In this document: positions 4,211 through 22,226 of the stretch, one piece after another
Numbering within the stretch: the first letter of the stretch is position 1
Layout: each line of letters starts with the position of its first letter
Source of the DNA: Solirubrobacteraceae bacterium
GTDB lineage: Bacteria > Actinomycetota > Thermoleophilia > Solirubrobacterales > Solirubrobacteraceae
DNA length: 40,208 nucleotides
Reading direction: 5' to 3'
NCBI GenBank assembly: GCA_025451035.1
Contig: JANWLE010000027.1
Location: forward strand, 1 to 40,208
The notes under the pieces: model-generated
Database searches by the model: none
What the model saw: only the letters and a program-made list of their open reading frames with translations
What the model was told of the DNA's origin: nothing
Program-made: the position numbers and the translations under genes

Positions 4211-5041
4211 TTAGCTCTCACCTAGCAGACCGTCATACAGCTCGTTGGCGCTCACGCCCGTGAGCTTGGCGAGCACGCCAGCCGCGGGACGGGGGCGGGC
4301 GCCAGCGTCGACGAGCGCGCGCAGCGCCGCGAGCGCGTCGGCGGGCTCGCGGCTAGCGGCGGGTGCCTGCGCGATGACGAGCACGACCTCCCCGCGCGGC
4401 GTGTGCTCGCGGTAGTGGGCTGCGAGCTGGGCGGCGGTGGCGCGCCTGACTTCCTCGTGCAGCTTGGTCAGCTCGCGACAGACAGCCACTTGACGCGACG
4501 GCTCGAGCTCGCTCAACACGAGCAGCGTCTGCGCGAGCCGCCGCGGCGACTCGAGCGCCACCAGCGTCTGGGGCGAGCTGGCCAAGACGCGCTCGAGCTC
4601 AGCGCGCTTGCGCGGGAGAAAGCCGGCGAAGCAGAAGCTCTGCGCGGTGTGCCCGGAGGCGACGAGCGCCGCCGTCACAGAGCTCGGGCCGGGCAGCACC
4701 CGCACCTCTAGCTGCGCGTCCAGGGCCGCACGGACCAGCTCATAGCCGGGGTCGGAGATGAGCGGCGTCCCCGCGTCTGAGACGAGCGCGACGACCGCGC
4801 CCGAGCGCATTCGCTCGAGCAGCTGCGCGGTGCGGGCCCGTTCGTTGTGCTCGTGGAAGCTGACGAGCTCGCGGGCATGTATCTGGTGGCGTTCAAGCAG
4901 CACACGCGTGTGGCGGGTGTCCTCGCAGGCGAGGATGTCGGCCTCGCGCAGCGCGCCCAGCACGCGCAAAGTGACGTCTTCGAGGTTGCCGATCGGCGTC
5001 GCGCACACCAGCAGCCCGCCGCCGGCTAGCTCACCCTTCAA
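4211..5041 (-). CDS. rsmI: 16S rRNA (cytidine1402-2'-O)-methyltransferase RsmI
   Basis: Tetrapyrrole-methylase-fold enzyme that 2'-O-methylates C1402 of 16S rRNA at the decoding centre. The N-terminus LLVCATPIGNLEDVTLRVL and the signature ACEDTRHTRVLLERH are diagnostic. VALVSDAGTPLISDPGYELV and the LPGPSSVTAALVASG loop complete the SAM-binding cleft, and GFLPRK is also typical. The 276-residue length is normal. Its 5' end overlaps the 3' end of the ROK kinase by 11 bp, so the two are probably cotranscribed. rsmI next to metG/tatD is a common Gram-positive arrangement. Confidence 0.96.
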   Translation of the reverse strand: MKGELAGGGLLVCATPIGNLEDVTLRVLGALREADILACEDTRHTRVLLERHQIHARELVSFHEHNERARTAQLLERMRSGAVVALVSDAGTPLISDPGYELVRAALDAQLEVRVLPGPSSVTAALVASGHTAQSFCFAGFLPRKRAELERVLASSPQTLVALESPRRLAQTLLVLSELEPSRQVAVCRELTKLHEEVRRATAAQLAAHYREHTPRGEVVLVIAQAPAASREPADALAALRALVDAGARPRPAAGVLAKLTGVSANELYDGLLGES

Positions 5042-6017
5042 CCGATGCTCCCAGCAGCAACCCGTCGAGCCCGTCGAAGGCGAGCGCGGCCGCGCCGATC
5101 ATGCCCGCCTCGGTGCCGAAGTGCGCCCGCTCGACACGCACCTGTTCGCGTGAGGGACGCAGCCCGCGTTCGGCGAGCACGCGTCGGGCGGGCTCGAGCA
5201 GCAGCTCGCCCGCCGCGATCACGCCGCCGCCGACGACGATGACCTCCAGGTTGAGCATGTTCACGAGGTTCACGATCCCCACGCCGAGGCGCCGGCCGAT
5301 CAGCTCGATCAGCCCGATCGCTTCGCTGTCGCCGTCGTGGGCCAGCTCGGTCACGAGCGCGCCGGTGATCGCGCGTCCGGAGGCTAGCGCCCGGCCGAGG
5401 CTCGAGTCGGGGCGCTCGTGCGCGAGCGCCAGCGCTTCGCGGGCGAGCGCGGTGCCGGAGGCGAGACTCTCCAGGCAGCCGTGGTTTGGGCAGTTGCCCT
5501 GGCACGGCGGCCCGTTTTCGTCGATCACCATGTGGCCGAGCTCGCCGGCGGCGCCGTGAGCGCCACGGTAGAGGCGCCCGGAGAGGATCAGGCCCCCGCC
5601 GATGCCCGTGCCAACCGTCAGCATCGCCGCGTGCGAGCAGCCACGTGCCGCGCCGGCGCGGTGCTCCGCGAGCGCGGCTACGTTCGCGTCATTGTCGACG
5701 AACGCCGGCAGGCCGAGCCGCTCGCTCATCACCGCCCGGAAGTCGATGTCGGCGAGCGGGAGATTGACGGCCATGACCGCCACGCCACGATCCTGGTCGA
5801 TCAGGCAAGGGATGCCGAAACCGACGGCACTCACCTCGACTGGGCTCGAGGCCCGTACCTCCTCGACGGCGTCGACCACCGTGTCGAGCACCTCCTTCTG
5901 GTCTGCGCCGGGCGCCGGGCGCTGGACGCGCTGCAATACGCGCAGCTGCTCGTCGAGCGCGCCGACGATCAGCTTGGTGCCGCCGAGGTCGACTCCGATC
6001 ACGCACTTGGGGTGCAT
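5031..6017 (-). CDS. ROK family sugar kinase (glucokinase-like)
   Basis: 328-residue cytoplasmic ROK protein. It has the phosphate-1 loop IGVDLGGTKLIVG at residues 7-19, the phosphate-2 region TVGTGIGGGLILSG, catalytic Asp in FVDNDANVAALAE, and the ROK zinc site GHM followed by CQGNC and GCLE. There is no N-terminal DNA-binding domain, so this is a kinase and not an XylR/NagC-type repressor. ATP-dependent phosphorylation of glucose is the likeliest activity, but N-acetylmannosamine or another sugar is possible. No Shine-Dalgarno sequence precedes the ATG; a TATAGT hexamer lies 6 nt before it, so the mRNA is probably leaderless. It heads the transcription unit that runs into rsmI. Confidence 0.9.
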   Translation of the reverse strand: MHPKCVIGVDLGGTKLIVGALDEQLRVLQRVQRPAPGADQKEVLDTVVDAVEEVRASSPVEVSAVGFGIPCLIDQDRGVAVMAVNLPLADIDFRAVMSERLGLPAFVDNDANVAALAEHRAGAARGCSHAAMLTVGTGIGGGLILSGRLYRGAHGAAGELGHMVIDENGPPCQGNCPNHGCLESLASGTALAREALALAHERPDSSLGRALASGRAITGALVTELAHDGDSEAIGLIELIGRRLGVGIVNLVNMLNLEVIVVGGGVIAAGELLLEPARRVLAERGLRPSREQVRVERAHFGTEAGMIGAAALAFDGLDGLLLGASVEG

Positions 6018-6029: not shown

Positions 6030-6140
6030 GGTGCGCTGCTTTGGAGGCGAGCCTCAGACGGCTCGAGCGTGAAGACCCGAGCGTTGGTTTAGGCGCCCGT
6101 AAGCTTGCTCGCGCAAAACTCTTCTAAGCAGCCCAAGCCG

Positions 6141-7277
6141 ATGAGCCCGCCCCCACAGGACAGCCCGCAAGACAGGCCCCGTTATCCGCCCGCGCCGCCA
6201 GCGGGTGCTGCTGGCCCGCGCGAGCCGCGGCGAGCCGACGCGCCCGTCTACACCCGCTACCGCGCTCGACCGAGGCTGTTTGGCTCAGGCGACGATGAGC
6301 AGCTGGCGCCCGAGCCCGCTCGCGTGGGGCGGCCGCGGCGCCTCACGCCCAGGCGGCTGGCGCTGGCGCTCGTAGCGGTGATCGCCGGCTGGCTCGTGCT
6401 TTCGCTCGTCTTGTTTCTCCTCAGCTCGCACTTCGAGCGCGTCTCGCCACCGGCGGACGTCAACAGCGTGCTCGACCCGGGCGGCTTCCCGCTGGCGAGC
6501 ACCACGAACATCCTCGTGCTCGGATCCGACCAGCGCCAGAAGAGCTCCAAGGAACCCGGCGCGAACACGTCCGGCCCGAGCCGCTCGGACACGATCATGC
6601 TGGTGCGCACCGGCGGCGGGCACTCCGCCCGGCTCTCGATCCCGAGGGACACGGTCGTGGAAATCCCCGGTCACGGCGAACAGAAGATCAACGCCGCGTA
6701 CGCGTTCGGCGGGCCGAAGCTTTCGATCACGGTGCTCAAGCGCTACCTGGGGATACCGATCAACCACGTGGTGATCGTCAGCTTCGAAGACTTCCCGGCG
6801 CTCGTCGACGCGATGGGCGGCGTCGACTACAGCGGCGGTTGCGTGATCGCGCGTGTCGATGGCGGCTACAGCAACGGCGGCGTGACGCTGCGCCTGAAGG
6901 CCGGCGCCCACCATCTCGATGGCCGCGAAGCGCTCGCTCTGGCGCGCACCCGCGAGAACCTCTGCGACCCGCGCCAGAGCGACCTCGAGCGCGTGCAGCG
7001 CCAGCAGCGCCTGCTGCAGGAAATCAAGAGCCGGCTGCTGAGCCCCTCGAGCTTCCTGCGCCTGCCGCTGATCGCGTGGAACGCCCCGCCGACGATCATC
7101 TCCGACATGTCCGGGCCGACCCTGCTCGGCCTGTTCGCGGCACTCGAGCTGGGCGGCACGCCGCCGACGCGAGTGCTCGGACCGCAGGGCGTCGTGACCC
7201 TCCCCGACGGGGAGACGGGGTTGCGCGTCTCCGCCTCACAGTGGCGTGCGGCCGCCGCGCGGTTCATGGCGGGCTGA
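6141..7277 (+). CDS. LytR-CpsA-Psr (LCP) family cell-wall polymer ligase
   Basis: Membrane-anchored phosphotransferase that attaches lipid-linked wall polymers (arabinogalactan-, teichoic- or other glycopolymer-type) to peptidoglycan. The 378-residue protein starts with a Pro-rich cytoplasmic tail of about 65 residues. One transmembrane helix follows at about 72-95 (LALALVAVIAGWLVLSLVLF), then an extracellular LCP domain. LCP hallmarks are NILVLGSDQR, SRSDTIMLVR, LSIPRDTVVEIPG, KINAAYAFGGP, and the Arg-rich ALARTRENLCDPRQSDLERV that binds the pyrophosphate of the lipid donor. A TTG at 6105 is also in frame; the ATG at 6141 is preferred. It is divergent from the ROK kinase, with 123 bp between them. 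Confidence 0.92.
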   Translation: MSPPPQDSPQDRPRYPPAPPAGAAGPREPRRADAPVYTRYRARPRLFGSGDDEQLAPEPARVGRPRRLTPRRLALALVAVIAGWLVLSLVLFLLSSHFERVSPPADVNSVLDPGGFPLASTTNILVLGSDQRQKSSKEPGANTSGPSRSDTIMLVRTGGGHSARLSIPRDTVVEIPGHGEQKINAAYAFGGPKLSITVLKRYLGIPINHVVIVSFEDFPALVDAMGGVDYSGGCVIARVDGGYSNGGVTLRLKAGAHHLDGREALALARTRENLCDPRQSDLERVQRQQRLLQEIKSRLLSPSSFLRLPLIAWNAPPTIISDMSGPTLLGLFAALELGGTPPTRVLGPQGVVTLPDGETGLRVSASQWRAAAARFMAG

Positions 7278-7304: not shown

Positions 7305-7335
7305 CCAGCCGCTGGCGCTAGGCGGCCGCGGCTGG
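7305..7335. terminator. Possible bidirectional terminator hairpin between LCP and ruc-like genes
   Basis: Perfect 8-bp inverted repeat (CCAGCCGC and GCGGCTGG) around a 15-nt loop, spanning the end of the minus-strand ruc-like gene and lying 28 bp beyond the LCP stop. There is no T tract, which is common for actinobacterial hairpins. It sits between two convergent genes. Confidence 0.4.
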
Positions 7336-7677
7336 CTCCGCCTTCTTGGCGCTGGCGCCGTCGCCTTTCGCCGCAGCGGCGGTGTCTGCTTTCGCGGTGT
7401 CTGCTTTCGCGGCGTCGCCTTTGTCCTCGGCCTGCGTTTTCTCGGAGGAAGCAGCCGCCGATGAGCTGCTGGCGTCGGACTGGTTCTCGCGCTGGCGCTT
7501 GCGCGTACCGTAGTCGGTGTTGTAGAAGCCCGAGCCCTTGAAGTGCACGGCCGGGGCATGCAGGACGCGCTCCACGGGGACGCCCGTCTCGGGGTCGGTC
7601 CTGAGCGGCTCGTCACTGAAGGACTGCAGCAGCTCGAACGTCGTGCCGTCTGGTCGTCTGTACTCGTAGATAGGCAT
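7318..7677 (-). CDS. FmdB/Ruc-like small chaperone lacking the zinc-ribbon cysteines
   Basis: 119-residue protein. The N-terminal half (MPIYEYRRPDGTTFELLQSF, SDEPL, then VHFKGSGFYNTDYG) is a clear FmdB-family domain. The closest known relative I can name is Mycobacterium tuberculosis Ruc (Rv0991c), a redox-regulated chaperone with a disordered tail that is coregulated with hsp60/hsp70. Here the two CxxC pairs are replaced (YRRPDG and DPETG), and the protein contains no cysteine. Residues from about 60 on are a disordered Ser/Ala/Lys/Asp tail with the repeated unit AKADTA. The ATG at 7677 gives the canonical MPIYEY; a GTG at 7683 is possible. No Shine-Dalgarno sequence is present. The start codon touches a CIRCE operator, which supports a heat-shock role. 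Confidence 0.85.
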   Translation of the reverse strand: MPIYEYRRPDGTTFELLQSFSDEPLRTDPETGVPVERVLHAPAVHFKGSGFYNTDYGTRKRQRENQSDASSSSAAASSEKTQAEDKGDAAKADTAKADTAAAAKGDGASAKKAEPAAAA

Positions 7678-7703
7678 TGGCACTCGAATTATAAGAGTGC
7701 CAA
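7677..7703 (-). promoter_or_regulatory. CIRCE element (HrcA operator) over the promoter of the ruc-like gene
   Basis: Perfect 9-bp inverted repeat with a 9-bp spacer: TTGGCACTC at 7677-7685 and GAGTGCCAA at 7695-7703. The CIRCE consensus is TTAGCACTC-N9-GAGTGCTAA; this site differs by one symmetric pair (A to G, T to C) and keeps the exact arm and spacer lengths. On the minus strand the spacer contains TATAAT (7693-7688), a consensus -10 hexamer 10 nt before the ATG, and the operator's last base is the A of the ATG. HrcA binding here would block RNA polymerase, and heat or unfolded protein would relieve it. Confidence 0.88.
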
Positions 7704-19199: not shown

Positions 19200-19277
19200 C
19201 GTTCCCAACACGCAGCCCCTCATAACCGACACGCATGCCTTTACGCGGCCGGCTCGGCGGCGAGGGTCGCGCTCGTT

Positions 19278-19283
19278 ATAGAG
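19278..19283 (+). promoter_or_regulatory. Candidate -10 hexamer (TAGAGT) of the sdhABE operon
   Basis: TAGAGT (within TTATAGAGT) lies 41 nt before the sdhA ATG in the 125-bp gap after the S2P gene. Unlike the leaderless genes, sdhA has a Shine-Dalgarno sequence, so a leader of about 35 nt fits. No clear -35 is visible. Confidence 0.35.
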
Positions 19284-19324
19284 TCTCGCCCGACACAGCC
19301 CTCTCTAGACGATCCAAGGGAGCA

Positions 19325-21016
19325 ATGCCAGCACACGACGTCCTCATAATCGGCGCCGGTCTCGCCGGACAGCGCGCCGCCCTCGCCGCCGCGACTTCCG
19401 GATCTAGCGTGGCGATCATGAGCAAGGTCCATCCGGTGCGCTCCCACTCGGTCGCCGCCGCCGGCGGCATCAACGCCGCCATCAACGTAGCCGACGACTG
19501 GCGCTCCCACGCCTACGACACGGTCAAGGGGTCTGACTTCCTGGGCGACCAGGACGCGATCGAGATCATGTGCTCGGAGGCCCCCGGCGAGGTCATGCAC
19601 CTCGAGCACATCGGCGTCACGTTCCACCGCAACGAGAAGGGCGAACTCGACCTGCGCGCGTTCGGCGGCGCCTCTATGAACCGCACCGCGTACGTGGCTG
19701 ACATCACCGGCCAGGCAATCTTGCACGTCCTCTACGAGCAGCTGATGAAGAACCACGAGCGCGTCGAGCGCTACGAGGAGTGGTTCGTGACCTCGCTGTT
19801 GCAGGACGACTCCGGCCGCTGCTGCGGGGTGATCGCCCGCGACGTGCGCACGGGGCGAATGGAGGTCTTCGCCGCCAAGAACGTGATCCTGGCGTGCGGC
19901 GGTGCCGGGCAGACGTACAGGCCGACCACGAACGCGCTGATCGTCACAGGGGACGGGATCGCGCAGGCCTACCGCGTCGGCGCGCCGCTGATGGACATGG
20001 AGATGGTCCAGTACCACCCGACCACGCTGGTGGAGAACGGCCTGTTGATCACCGAGGGCGCCCGCGGCGAGGGAGCGGTGCTGCTGAACTCCGAGGGCGA
20101 GCGCTTCATGGAGAAGTACGCCCCGAACAAGATGGAGCTCGCCTCGCGCGACGTCGTCTCGCGCGCCGAGCAGACCGAGATCCTCGAGGGCCGGGGTGTC
20201 GGCGCTCACGGCGAGGGTATCTACCTGGACATCACCAAGGTGCCGCGCAAGCGAACGCTGGAGGCGCTGCGCGAGATCGTCAACATCGGCAAGGATTTCG
20301 CCGGCGTGGACATCACGCGCGAACCGATCATGATCCGACCCGGCCAGCACTACATCATGGGCGGCGTCAAGACCGACGTGAATGGCGCAACCCCAATCGA
20401 GGGCCTGTACGCGGCTGGCGAGGTCGCCTGCGTATCGGTCCACGGCGGCAACCGCCTGGGCGCCAACTCGCTACTGGACACGCTGATCTTCGGCCGCCGC
20501 GCCGGCGAACACGCCGCCGCGCGGTCCTCCTCGATGGCGATGCCGACCCCGCCCGAGGCCCAGTTGCGCGACGACGCGGCCAAGATCGACTCGATCATCG
20601 CCCGCGATCGCTCCGGCCGGCGCGTCTCGGAGATCAAGGACGAGCTAGGCGACACAATGAACAAGTACGTCGCCGTGTACCGCGACGAGCAGGGCCTGGA
20701 CAAAGCCCACGAAGTCGTCCGGCGACTGAAGGACGAGGCGCAGAGCGCGTACATCGACGATCGCGGCACGGTCTTCAACCAGGACGTGCTCGGGGCGATC
20801 GAGCTCGGCTACATGCTCGACTGCGCAGAGGCGATCGTCGTCGCCGCGCTCGAGCGCAAGGAGTCGCGCGGCGCCCAGTTCCGCACCGACTACCCCGAGC
20901 GCAACGACGATGAGTGGCTCAAGCACATCGACATCACCGTCGGGACGGACGGCCCTCAGGTCAGCTATTCACCAGTAACCATCACTCAGTGGCAGCCCGA
21001 GGAGCGCAAATACTAG
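19325..21016 (+). CDS. sdhA: Succinate dehydrogenase/fumarate reductase flavoprotein subunit
   Basis: FAD-bearing catalytic subunit that oxidises succinate to fumarate. The 563-residue protein starts with LIIGAGLAGQRAALAAA and has the covalent-FAD histidine in RSHSVAAAGG (His41). Substrate residues appear in VQYHPTTL, ITEGARGEGAVLLNSEGERF, the Arg loop LASRDVVSRA, and GGVKTDVNG with NRLGANSLLDTLIFGRRAG. The ATG at 19325 follows AAGGGAG. It is the first gene of sdhA-sdhB-sdhE; no cytochrome b or other multi-helix membrane subunit is present, pointing to a type E enzyme. A 17-codon open frame bridges to sdhB. Confidence 0.97.
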   Translation: MPAHDVLIIGAGLAGQRAALAAATSGSSVAIMSKVHPVRSHSVAAAGGINAAINVADDWRSHAYDTVKGSDFLGDQDAIEIMCSEAPGEVMHLEHIGVTFHRNEKGELDLRAFGGASMNRTAYVADITGQAILHVLYEQLMKNHERVERYEEWFVTSLLQDDSGRCCGVIARDVRTGRMEVFAAKNVILACGGAGQTYRPTTNALIVTGDGIAQAYRVGAPLMDMEMVQYHPTTLVENGLLITEGARGEGAVLLNSEGERFMEKYAPNKMELASRDVVSRAEQTEILEGRGVGAHGEGIYLDITKVPRKRTLEALREIVNIGKDFAGVDITREPIMIRPGQHYIMGGVKTDVNGATPIEGLYAAGEVACVSVHGGNRLGANSLLDTLIFGRRAGEHAAARSSSMAMPTPPEAQLRDDAAKIDSIIARDRSGRRVSEIKDELGDTMNKYVAVYRDEQGLDKAHEVVRRLKDEAQSAYIDDRGTVFNQDVLGAIELGYMLDCAEAIVVAALERKESRGAQFRTDYPERNDDEWLKHIDITVGTDGPQVSYSPVTITQWQPEERKY

Positions 21017-21068
21017 AGATGAGCGGACCGTCCGCCACAGCCCCCGCGAATGAGGAGATGAGCATCTG

Positions 21069-22226
21069 ATGGCCGAGACGCACAAGCCGCCGGAGCAATT
21101 CACCCTGCGGCTGCGCCGTTACAACCCGGAGTCGGGCGAGGCCCCCTACTGGGACGAGCACACGATCGAGCTCGAGCCCCACCGCTCGGTGCTGGAGGGG
21201 ATCCTGCAGGCCAGGGCGAAGTTCGACGGCTCGATCGGTATCCGCTGCTCCTGCCGCGCGGCGATCTGCGGCTCCTGCGGAGTGCGCATCAACGGCGAGC
21301 CGGGCCTGGCCTGCCACACCCACCTGGATCACGCCAGGGAGTCCGCCAAGGACGGCGTGATCGAGGTCGAGCCGATGGGCAACATGCCCGTCATCAAGGA
21401 CCTGATCGTCGACATGGACGCGGTGCACTGGAAGAAGATCAAGCGCGTCACGCCCTGGCTGATCAACAAGCAGCCGGTGCCCCAGCGCGAGTACATCGTC
21501 GACCGCGAGGCGATGGTGGACGTCACCCAGACGATGGCCTGCATCCAGTGTGGTGCGTGCGTGTCCGACTGCCTGTCGATGGAGGTCGATCCCGGCTTCA
21601 TCGGGCCGGCCGCGCTCGCGAAGGCCTATCGCTTCGTCGGCGATCCGCGTGACGACCAGCGCTTTGAGCGCCTGAACGACCTCTCGCAGGACCCGCAGGG
21701 GATCTACGACTGCACCCACTGCTTCAAGTGCGTTCAGGCCTGCCCGAAGGACGTCAACCCGATGGGACAGATCATGCGCCTGCGGCGTATCGCCGGCTCT
21801 GACGAGCACATCGTGGACGCCAACAACGGCCATCGCCACGAGGAAACGATCACGACGCTCATTCGCGACTACGGTCTCCTGCACGAGGCGGAGATGCTGC
21901 CACGCTCCTATGGCGGGAACTCCTGGTTCGGAAAGTTCCATCCAGCCGCCGGCAAGGAGCTGCTGTCCTCGCTGCCGGTCATCACCAAGGCGCTTCTGCG
22001 CCGCAAGGTCAATCCCCGTATCGCGATGTTCGGCCACAAGATCGCCAAACGCGACCTCGACGCGGTCAAGCGGATCTACCAGCGCGTGGAGTCACGTCCT
22101 GAGCGTTACGAGCTGAACCTGTACATCACCGGCTACGACGAAGAGCCCGAGCAGGCGCCGGTGTCCGCCACGGCCGGCGACGCGATGCCTTCGGCGCCGG
22201 GATCGGAAGGGAGCACGAACCCATGA
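21069..22226 (+). CDS. sdhB: Succinate dehydrogenase iron-sulfur subunit with extra cluster cysteine and C-terminal extension
   Basis: Electron-transfer subunit of 385 residues, well above the usual 230-250. The [2Fe-2S] ligands are C60, C62, C67, C70 and C82. The [4Fe-4S] ligands are C158, C161, C164 and C168 (CIQCGACVSDC). The third cluster motif is CTHCFKCVQACPKD, with C215, C218, C221 and C225. Standard SdhB has only three cysteines here for a [3Fe-4S] cluster; C218 is the extra ligand expected for a second [4Fe-4S], as known for type E enzymes. About 130 residues follow the clusters. The ATG overlaps a preceding mini-ORF stop (TGATG), and the gene overlaps sdhE by 4 bp. Confidence 0.96.
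   Translation: MAETHKPPEQFTLRLRRYNPESGEAPYWDEHTIELEPHRSVLEGILQARAKFDGSIGIRCSCRAAICGSCGVRINGEPGLACHTHLDHARESAKDGVIEVEPMGNMPVIKDLIVDMDAVHWKKIKRVTPWLINKQPVPQREYIVDREAMVDVTQTMACIQCGACVSDCLSMEVDPGFIGPAALAKAYRFVGDPRDDQRFERLNDLSQDPQGIYDCTHCFKCVQACPKDVNPMGQIMRLRRIAGSDEHIVDANNGHRHEETITTLIRDYGLLHEAEMLPRSYGGNSWFGKFHPAAGKELLSSLPVITKALLRRKVNPRIAMFGHKIAKRDLDAVKRIYQRVESRPERYELNLYITGYDEEPEQAPVSATAGDAMPSAPGSEGSTNP

What the first reader, a model, noticed from the sequence alone, without database searches (positions are those of the whole stretch)
7318..7703. HrcA/CIRCE-controlled Ruc-like chaperone that has lost all zinc-ribbon cysteines
A perfect inverted repeat with CIRCE geometry (9-9-9, one symmetric change from consensus) begins at the A of the start codon and encloses a TATAAT -10. 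The gene behind it has an FmdB/Ruc N-terminal domain (MPIYEY, FELLQSFSDEPL, FKGSGFYNTD) and a disordered tail, but no cysteine at all. M. tuberculosis Ruc is a chaperone switched on by oxidation of its zinc cysteines and is coregulated with hsp60/hsp70. Here the heat-shock control is kept while the redox switch is gone, suggesting a constitutively active or purely heat-induced form of this chaperone family.
Basis: partly seen in the sequence, partly recalled or inferred. Interest (0 to 1): 0.78.

Follow-up and report, generated by a model that had tools for sequence, protein, structure and literature searches.

The report
Cysteine-free relative of chaperone Ruc
A small heat-shock protein whose known cousin is switched on when oxidants strip zinc from its cysteines has, in one bacterial group, lost all zinc-binding cysteines and gained what look like tight protein turns in their place, while this gene keeps its heat-shock operator; this suggests a natural chaperone without the redox switch.

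Summary
The window gene (7318-7677, minus strand, 119 aa) is an FmdB/Ruc-family protein with no cysteine. A perfect 9-9-9 CIRCE ends on the A of its ATG and encloses TATAAT. The genome has hrcA; the same operator variant stands before two groES genes and a near-identical one before a third.

The protein belongs to a Cys-less form seen in 10 of 22 sampled genera of its family and one genus of another family (order Solirubrobacterales). In most genera it sits at a conserved locus (convergent lytR, often ROK and rsmI) where other genera encode a zinc-ribbon form. CIRCE stands before members of both forms, so heat-shock control is older than the loss.

The ligands were replaced, not scrambled. In all 73 distinct Cys-less N-domains, C8, H12, C28 and C31 became R, T/S, D and T/S; 46 read DPETG at the second knuckle, the centre of the designed mini-protein chignolin. 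RpoBC phylogeny rejects one clade of Cys-less genomes: parallel loss or allele exchange.

Best reading: an HrcA-repressed, zinc-independent Ruc-like holdase without a thiol switch. New variant of a known kind.

The parts
7318..7677 (-). fmdB/ruc-like CDS, 119 aa, ATG at 7677-7675, no Cys
7677..7703 (-). CIRCE-type operator TTGGCACTC-N9-GAGTGCCAA, overlapping the A of the start codon
7688..7693 (-). TATAAT, likely -10 element inside the operator spacer; predicted start point within about 4 nt of the ATG, i.e. a leaderless or near-leaderless transcript (inference)
   Evidence: TATA[ACT]T in the spacer in 28 of 28 operators that overlap the ATG, 0 of 36 operators further upstream; no -35 found
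7486..7677 (-). FmdB/Ruc N-terminal domain, residues 1-64
7642..7656 (-). former first zinc knuckle, residues 8-12 RPDGT (mostly C-x2-G-H in sister genera)
7582..7596 (-). former second zinc knuckle, residues 28-32 DPETG (C-x2-C-x in sister genera)
7321..7485 (-). hydrophilic tail, residues 65-119, made only of A,S,K,D,E,T,G,Q,N,P; no bulky hydrophobic residue
7735..8343 (-). TetR-family regulator directly upstream (neighbour, not part of the unit)
6105..7277 (+). LytR-CpsA-Psr gene, convergent; marker of the conserved locus
5031..6017 (-). ROK-type sugar kinase (my reading of the sequence), marker of the conserved locus
4211..5041 (-). rsmI-like methylase (TP_methylase 112.8 bits; RsmI_C 22.5, under its cut-off), marker of the conserved locus

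Best explanation
This is the Solirubrobacterales counterpart of the Ruc/FmdB heat-shock protein in a zinc-independent form. Shown: HrcA is encoded, and the operator overlaps TATAAT and the start codon and has the arms of the groES operators. Shown: sister genera carry a zinc-ligand set (mostly C-x3-H...C-x2-C), many of them at the same locus, and here both knuckles are replaced by RPDGT and DPETG. Inferred: HrcA represses in unstressed cells by covering the -10; heat releases HrcA and a leaderless mRNA is made. The protein then works as a holdase through its hydrophilic tail, without needing oxidation or zinc release. Control is thus mainly by amount (transcription) instead of by a thiol switch, and the turns keep the N-domain folded without metal.
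For: Operator, hrcA and groES operators. HrcA in 59 of 59 genomes tested. CIRCE-like site upstream of 23 of 47 Cys-less and 41 of 93 Cys-containing genes, 0 of 2800 shuffled windows, so control predates Cys loss. At least one locus marker (lytR, ROK or rsmI) beside 40 of 47 Cys-less and 59 of 93 Cys-containing genes. Cys-less best copy in all sampled members of 10 of 22 family-f1 genera and of f4 genus g25. Fixed replacements in 73 of 73 distinct N-domains. N-domain under constraint, median dN/dS about 0.24, maximum 0.81, over 1078 pairs; rough because dS is high. No Hsp33 match in 59 of 59 genomes, so that redox holdase does not stand in for it. M. tuberculosis Ruc C8S/C11S and C29S/C32S bind no zinc and prevent aggregation when reduced; the tail is needed; HrcA represses ruc (PMC7448276, passages and sections 8, 10, 13).
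Against: No activity, binding or induction data. 24 of 47 Cys-less genes have no recognisable CIRCE, including 11 of 19 in the window's own genus, so heat control is not kept by all. Genera g17 and g19 showed none of the locus markers (0 of 6 loci), so orthology by position is not shown for them. A domain folded without zinc might imitate the inactive zinc-bound state instead of the active mutants.
Confidence: 0.58

Rival explanations
1. The turns lock the N-domain in a closed, inactive-like fold, and heat itself melts it: a thermally gated holdase in place of an oxidation-gated one.
For: Replacements are fixed and turn-like, not random decay: D-P-x-T/S-G in 73 of 73 and DPETG in 46 of 73 distinct domains. 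DPETG is the centre of chignolin, a designed 10-residue protein (sequence read in a passage of PMC6435801; that these residues form its hairpin turn is recalled).
Against: No structure, stability or activity data. In Ruc, loss of zinc was enough for activity in the 45 C assay.
Confidence: 0.22
2. The family is an adaptor (for example handing clients to DnaK or binding another partner through the conserved FKGSGFYxTD stretch); the zinc site was only structural, so its replacement leaves function unchanged and says nothing about redox control.
For: K47, G48, G50, F51, T54, D55 and Y56 are invariant in 80 mixed sequences while ligands change. Zinc ribbons that lost metal but kept a fold are known, e.g. 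Cren7/Sul7 (abstract of PMC5906684). The Ruc paper reports a DnaK interaction (section 13).
Against: Ruc itself shows oxidation-dependent holdase activity, and its C-to-S variants change activity (section 10).
Confidence: 0.13
3. Zinc-sparing variant, like the C-minus forms of ribosomal proteins (comparison recalled): the point of the change is to save zinc, not to alter chaperone control.
For: Zinc ligands are lost while the rest of the domain is conserved.
Against: The recognised control element is CIRCE, shared with groES. The genome's single L31 match keeps its Cys residues. No second FmdB above the cut-off to switch with. No zinc operator was searched for.
Confidence: 0.05
4. History: a single Cys-less allele spread by exchange (or one ancestral loss with later re-acquisition in g13/g16), instead of several parallel losses.
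For: Replacements at positions 8, 12, 28, 29 and 31 are the same everywhere. The neighbouring lytR tree does not reject one clade (p-AU 0.33). Tandem copies exist in some genomes, one with a 3-Cys second copy (L029).
Against: RpoBC: one clade of all Cys-less genomes rejected, p-AU 2.9e-10; f1 members alone p 0.032. Locus markers are kept around many genes of both states.
Confidence: 0.4
5. Chance or annotation artefact: a decayed pseudogene with a fortuitous palindrome.
For: Fragmented MAG assemblies; some genes without CIRCE.
Against: 0 of 100 shuffles gave such an operator. The Cys-less form recurs in 47 of 140 labelled loci, with 27 invariant columns in a 17-sequence alignment.
Confidence: 0.01

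Closest known systems
Ruc (Rv0991c) of Mycobacterium tuberculosis, FmdB/TIGR02605-type protein
   Same: Zinc-ribbon-family N-terminal domain, hydrophilic tail, HrcA control together with Hsp60/Hsp10 genes (PMC7448276, passages and sections 8, 10, 13; the paper does not use the name FmdB)
   Different: Ruc has C8, C11, C29, C32, binds zinc and is activated by oxidation; here no Cys, and the ligand positions are R, T, D, T in turn-like sequences. I made no direct alignment with Ruc, and did not look for SigH control
C-to-S mutants of Ruc
   Same: Not bound to zinc; active when reduced (PMC7448276, section 10)
   Different: Each mutant lacks two ligands and is laboratory made; the natural form replaces both knuckles with a fixed sequence set and is shared by whole genera
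CIRCE/HrcA regulon
   Same: 9-9-9 inverted repeat, hrcA in the genome, groES operators of the same sequence
   Different: Operator overlaps the likely -10 and the start codon of a likely leaderless gene; arm variant TTGGCACTC
FmdB-family selenoproteins (UxxU)
   Same: Same family TIGR02605, change at Cys positions (table entry in PMC13188914, passage read)
   Different: Opposite direction: selenocysteine gained there, all thiols lost here
Cren7/Sul7 chromatin proteins
   Same: Derived from a zinc ribbon by loss of metal chelation (abstract of PMC5906684)
   Different: Unrelated archaeal family; there stronger hydrophobic interactions, here turn-like sequences
Hsp33
   Same: Redox holdase whose role Ruc is speculated to fill in some phyla (PMC7448276, section 13)
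   Different: No match in any of the 59 genomes tested

Membership tests
FmdB family (TIGR02605) | profile match above the curated cut-off | tested here: met
   35.0 bits against 31.3; Pfam Zn_ribbon_8 33.4 against 34.4, just below
FmdB family (TIGR02605) | zinc ligands CxxC...CxxC (or C-x3-H...CxxC) | tested here: not met
   no Cys in 119 aa; none in the whole protein of 47 labelled and 66 named Cys-less homologues, which overlap in part
FmdB family (TIGR02605) | same genomic position as zinc-site members | tested here: met
   window gene has the convergent lytR, ROK, rsmI row; at least one of these markers beside 40 of 47 Cys-less and 59 of 93 Cys-containing genes; none in 6 loci of g17 and g19
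Ruc-type redox-regulated chaperone | disordered, hydrophilic C-terminal tail | tested here: inconclusive
   composition fits: 55 residues, no bulky hydrophobic residue; disorder not measured
Ruc-type redox-regulated chaperone | repression by HrcA | tested here: inconclusive
   operator and hrcA present; binding and repression not testable with these tools
Ruc-type redox-regulated chaperone | activation by oxidation through cysteines | tested here: not met
   no cysteine, so a thiol switch inside the protein is impossible
Ruc-type redox-regulated chaperone | prevention of protein aggregation; transfer to DnaK | not testable with these tools
   -
CIRCE operator | 9-9-9 inverted repeat near TTAGCACTC, hrcA in genome, same site at groES | tested here: met
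zinc-sparing C-minus proteins (recalled kind) | paired with a C-plus copy and controlled by zinc status | tested here: inconclusive
   no second FmdB above the cut-off in the genome; zinc response and zinc operators not tested

The most novel reading that the evidence does not exclude
At least twice, and perhaps three or four times, lineages of Solirubrobacterales turned an oxidation-gated zinc chaperone into a metal-free one by replacing both zinc knuckles, in place and under HrcA control, with the same autonomous beta-turn sequences (x-D-G-T and D-P-E-T-G, the chignolin centre). This would be parallel evolution of a defined zinc-to-turn swap that moves control from thiol chemistry to transcription and temperature.
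Probability: 0.3. Interest if true: 0.78.

Novelty: new variant of a known kind. Interest (0 to 1): 0.6.

Why it matters
The Ruc paper speculates that this widespread family guards proteins during oxidative stress through its cysteines. A natural clade that keeps the gene, often its locus and its heat-shock operator, but not the cysteines suggests that the redox switch is dispensable for whatever keeps the gene. It also supplies natural pairs (for example Conexibacter sp. S30A1 with Cys, Paraconexibacter antarcticus and Patulibacter without) to test what zinc and oxidation add. The fixed replacements are a natural example of a zinc-free ribbon, useful to those who study metal loss in small folds.

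Tried and rejected
PDB sequence search found no confident match: best E 0.052 with the Cys-less profile and E 0.0052 with the Cys profile, entry 2m6o, an uncharacterized protein (from memory an RbpA zinc ribbon, and RbpA entries follow it). Gene tree of the FmdB domain without the knuckle columns: 50 columns, too few to settle the number of losses (6 changes, 2 forced, 0 of 200 bootstrap trees with one origin). Hsp33 as a stand-in for the lost redox switch: not found, 0 of 59. General zinc sparing: disfavoured by one protein only, L31. Alternative zinc ligands: the fixed replacements R, T/S and P are not ligands (inference, not tested). The terminator-like hits near 7368 are near the shuffle level (2 against 0.8, sd 1.0). 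In the genus scan with up to 3 mismatches the reversed control pattern also rang 0-3 times per genome, so sites with 3 mismatches there are not trusted.

Full report
OBSERVATION. The window holds TTGGCACTC-N9-GAGTGCCAA at 7677-7703 with complementary arms. It is the only match to the CIRCE consensus with up to three mismatches; 0 of 100 shuffles gave one. Read on the minus strand, the spacer holds TATAAT and the 3' arm ends on the A of the ATG of a 119-codon gene (7677-7318). The protein has no cysteine, matches the FmdB family model above its cut-off (35.0 against 31.3 bits) and falls just under the Pfam Zn_ribbon_8 cut-off (33.4 against 34.4). Residues 65-119 contain no bulky hydrophobic residue.

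REGULON. The window lies in a 2.87 Mb draft genome of 122 contigs. From named relatives and group codes it belongs to Solirubrobacterales, probably Solirubrobacteraceae (family coded f1). The genome has one HrcA match (3.4e-47), followed by a dnaJ-like frame (my reading of the sequence). The same operator variant stands before groES on contigs C76 (two sites, one with CTGGCACTC) and C101 (two sites). A perfect palindrome with CTGGCACTC stands before a third groES-like frame on C71. C71 and C101 are contigs under 8 kb, and the C71 frame lies near a contig end and has an odd C-terminus, so the third copy is less sure. So the recognisable CIRCE set is two or three groES genes plus this gene, much like the four HrcA targets of M. 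tuberculosis described in PMC7448276 (passage read). One further three-mismatch match on C92 was not examined; at that stringency the control also rings once in this genome. HrcA is present in 59 of 59 genomes tested across the class.

LINEAGE. Homologues were found in 185 of 201 genomes of the order, 370 of 399 of the class and 347 of 396 of the phylum. I read 140 loci labelled by family and genus: 47 have no Cys and 93 have three or four in the first 60 residues of the best-scoring copy. The Cys-less copy occurs in 45 of 69 loci of family f1 and in both loci of family f4, and in none of 69 loci of the nine other families read. Within f1 it marks 10 genera (g1, g2, g3, g4, g6, g8, g9, g10, g17, g19) and is absent from 12; no genus was mixed, though some were sampled once. 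In 80 named loci, which are the best-scoring 80 of 379 relatives and thus biased to the query, 66 have none, 3 have one and 11 have three. All 30 loci that I read from outside the class, taken from the higher-scoring ones, have three or four (10, 20).

SAME LOCUS, CONTROL FIRST. In the window a convergent lytR is followed by ROK and rsmI. At least one of these markers, in place, lies beside 40 of 47 Cys-less and 59 of 93 Cys-containing genes; flanks were often short. It was found in f1, f2, f3, f4, f5, f7 and f11, and in no locus of f6, f8, f9 and f10, nor in the Cys-less genera g17 and g19 (0 of 6). A CIRCE-like site (at most 5 mismatches, at least 7 of 9 arm pairs, 150 bp upstream) stands before 23 of 47 Cys-less and 41 of 93 Cys-containing genes, against 0 of 2800 base-shuffled windows, and by the same criteria before 9 of 20 genes from outside the class. 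So HrcA control is older than the loss of cysteines. Sites fall in two classes: 28 overlap the start codon and all 28 hold TATA[ACT]T in the spacer; 36 lie further upstream and none does. The overlapping class also occurs before Cys-containing genes (13 of the 28). Operators come and go: in the window's genus 11 of 19 sampled genes lack a recognisable one, 8 of those 11 keep TATAAT near the same spot (read by eye), and G154, which lacks it at this gene, has four CIRCE-like sites with 0-2 mismatches elsewhere (reversed control: 2 at up to 3 mismatches).

WHAT REPLACED THE ZINC SITE. Sister genera mostly read YRC-xx-G-H-x-F ... C-x-x-C-x (C8, H12, C28, C31); of 24 such loci in f1, L169 has D12 and L182 an insertion. 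In all 73 distinct Cys-less N-domains position 8 is R, 11 is G, 12 is T or S, 28 is D, 29 is P, 31 is T or S and 32 is G. The second knuckle reads DPETG in 46 of 73 and D-P-x-T/S-G in all; the first reads RPDGT or RPDGS in 59 of 73. DPETG is the centre of chignolin, GYDPETGTWG (sequence read in a passage of PMC6435801; that it forms the hairpin turn is recalled). This is ordered replacement under constraint: median dN/dS is about 0.24 (maximum 0.81) over 1078 pairs, a rough estimate at high dS. One named MAG (L118) keeps only C28 and may be an intermediate.

HOW OFTEN. On a tree of RpoB and RpoC from 54 genomes the state changes at least 4 times, 3 of them forced by well supported branches. 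One clade of all Cys-less genomes is rejected (p-AU 2.9e-10), and of f1 members alone at p 0.032. Nine genomes have under half of the columns, the window's own among them. The neighbouring lytR tree needs 3 changes, 2 forced, but does not reject one clade (p-AU 0.33). So either parallel losses reached the same solution, or the allele moved by exchange; I cannot separate the two.

MECHANISM. In PMC7448276 (sections 8, 10 and 13 read; passages) Ruc binds zinc through its four Cys, is inactive when reduced, and is active when oxidised. Both double C-to-S variants bind no zinc and are active when reduced, and the tail is needed. The natural Cys-less form cannot have a thiol switch. The genomes also show no Hsp33 (0 of 59; the same search rings in 8 of 14 control genomes). 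The best reading is a holdase whose activity is set by its amount, through HrcA. Because both knuckles became turn-like sequences, the N-domain probably still folds, so a closed, heat-opened form is a serious rival. L31 of this genome keeps its Cys, so general zinc sparing is not indicated by that one protein.

PRIOR ART. Library searches on Ruc/FmdB/HrcA words (listings seen, 10 of 126 papers listed in the last) and on zinc loss showed no paper on a Cys-less Ruc; only open-licence PMC papers are held. The FmdB family is listed with selenocysteine UxxU forms (PMC13188914, one passage), the opposite change. Zinc ribbons that lost metal but kept a fold are known, e.g. Cren7/Sul7 (PMC5906684, abstract).

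VERDICT. Real, conserved, and a new variant of a known kind. The operator and the loss are well supported; the functional consequence is open and easily testable with cultured environmental strains.

Noticed in passing
G000 contigs C76, C101, C71 (L002, L282, L279): Three groES or groES-like genes in one 2.87 Mb draft genome, each with one or two CIRCE sites; the C71 copy lies near a contig end and has an odd C-terminus.
   Followed up: partly
L033, L091, L093, L097, L099, L103, L104, L160, L161 (genus g9 / Patulibacter and relatives; some are the same genome): Tandem pair of Cys-less FmdB genes; only the first has a recognisable CIRCE, and the second carries a variant FYxND motif.
   Followed up: no
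L029 (G005), second copy near 1243-1488: A Cys-less copy with CIRCE followed by a divergent 3-Cys paralogue: both states side by side.
   Followed up: no
L118: A Solirubrobacterales MAG whose protein keeps only the third ligand (CPTTG), a possible intermediate of the loss.
   Followed up: no
L106 and L107, first 60 residues: Two proteins of the Cys-less type with a Cys just before the turn (LECDPETG), one residue before the ligand position of the sister genera.
   Followed up: no
L169 (G048, genus g13): A 3-Cys protein with D instead of H at position 12, so one ligand of the first knuckle seems lost in a genus near the window's.
   Followed up: no
window 19235-22226 +: Succinate dehydrogenase/fumarate reductase-type flavoprotein and iron-sulfur genes (Pfam); no tRNA genes in the window.
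   Followed up: no
L042, L076, L079, L082, L098 record titles: Public records titled Chlamydiae bacterium or Bifidobacterium breve carry genes that cluster with Solirubrobacterales; the titles look wrong.
   Followed up: no
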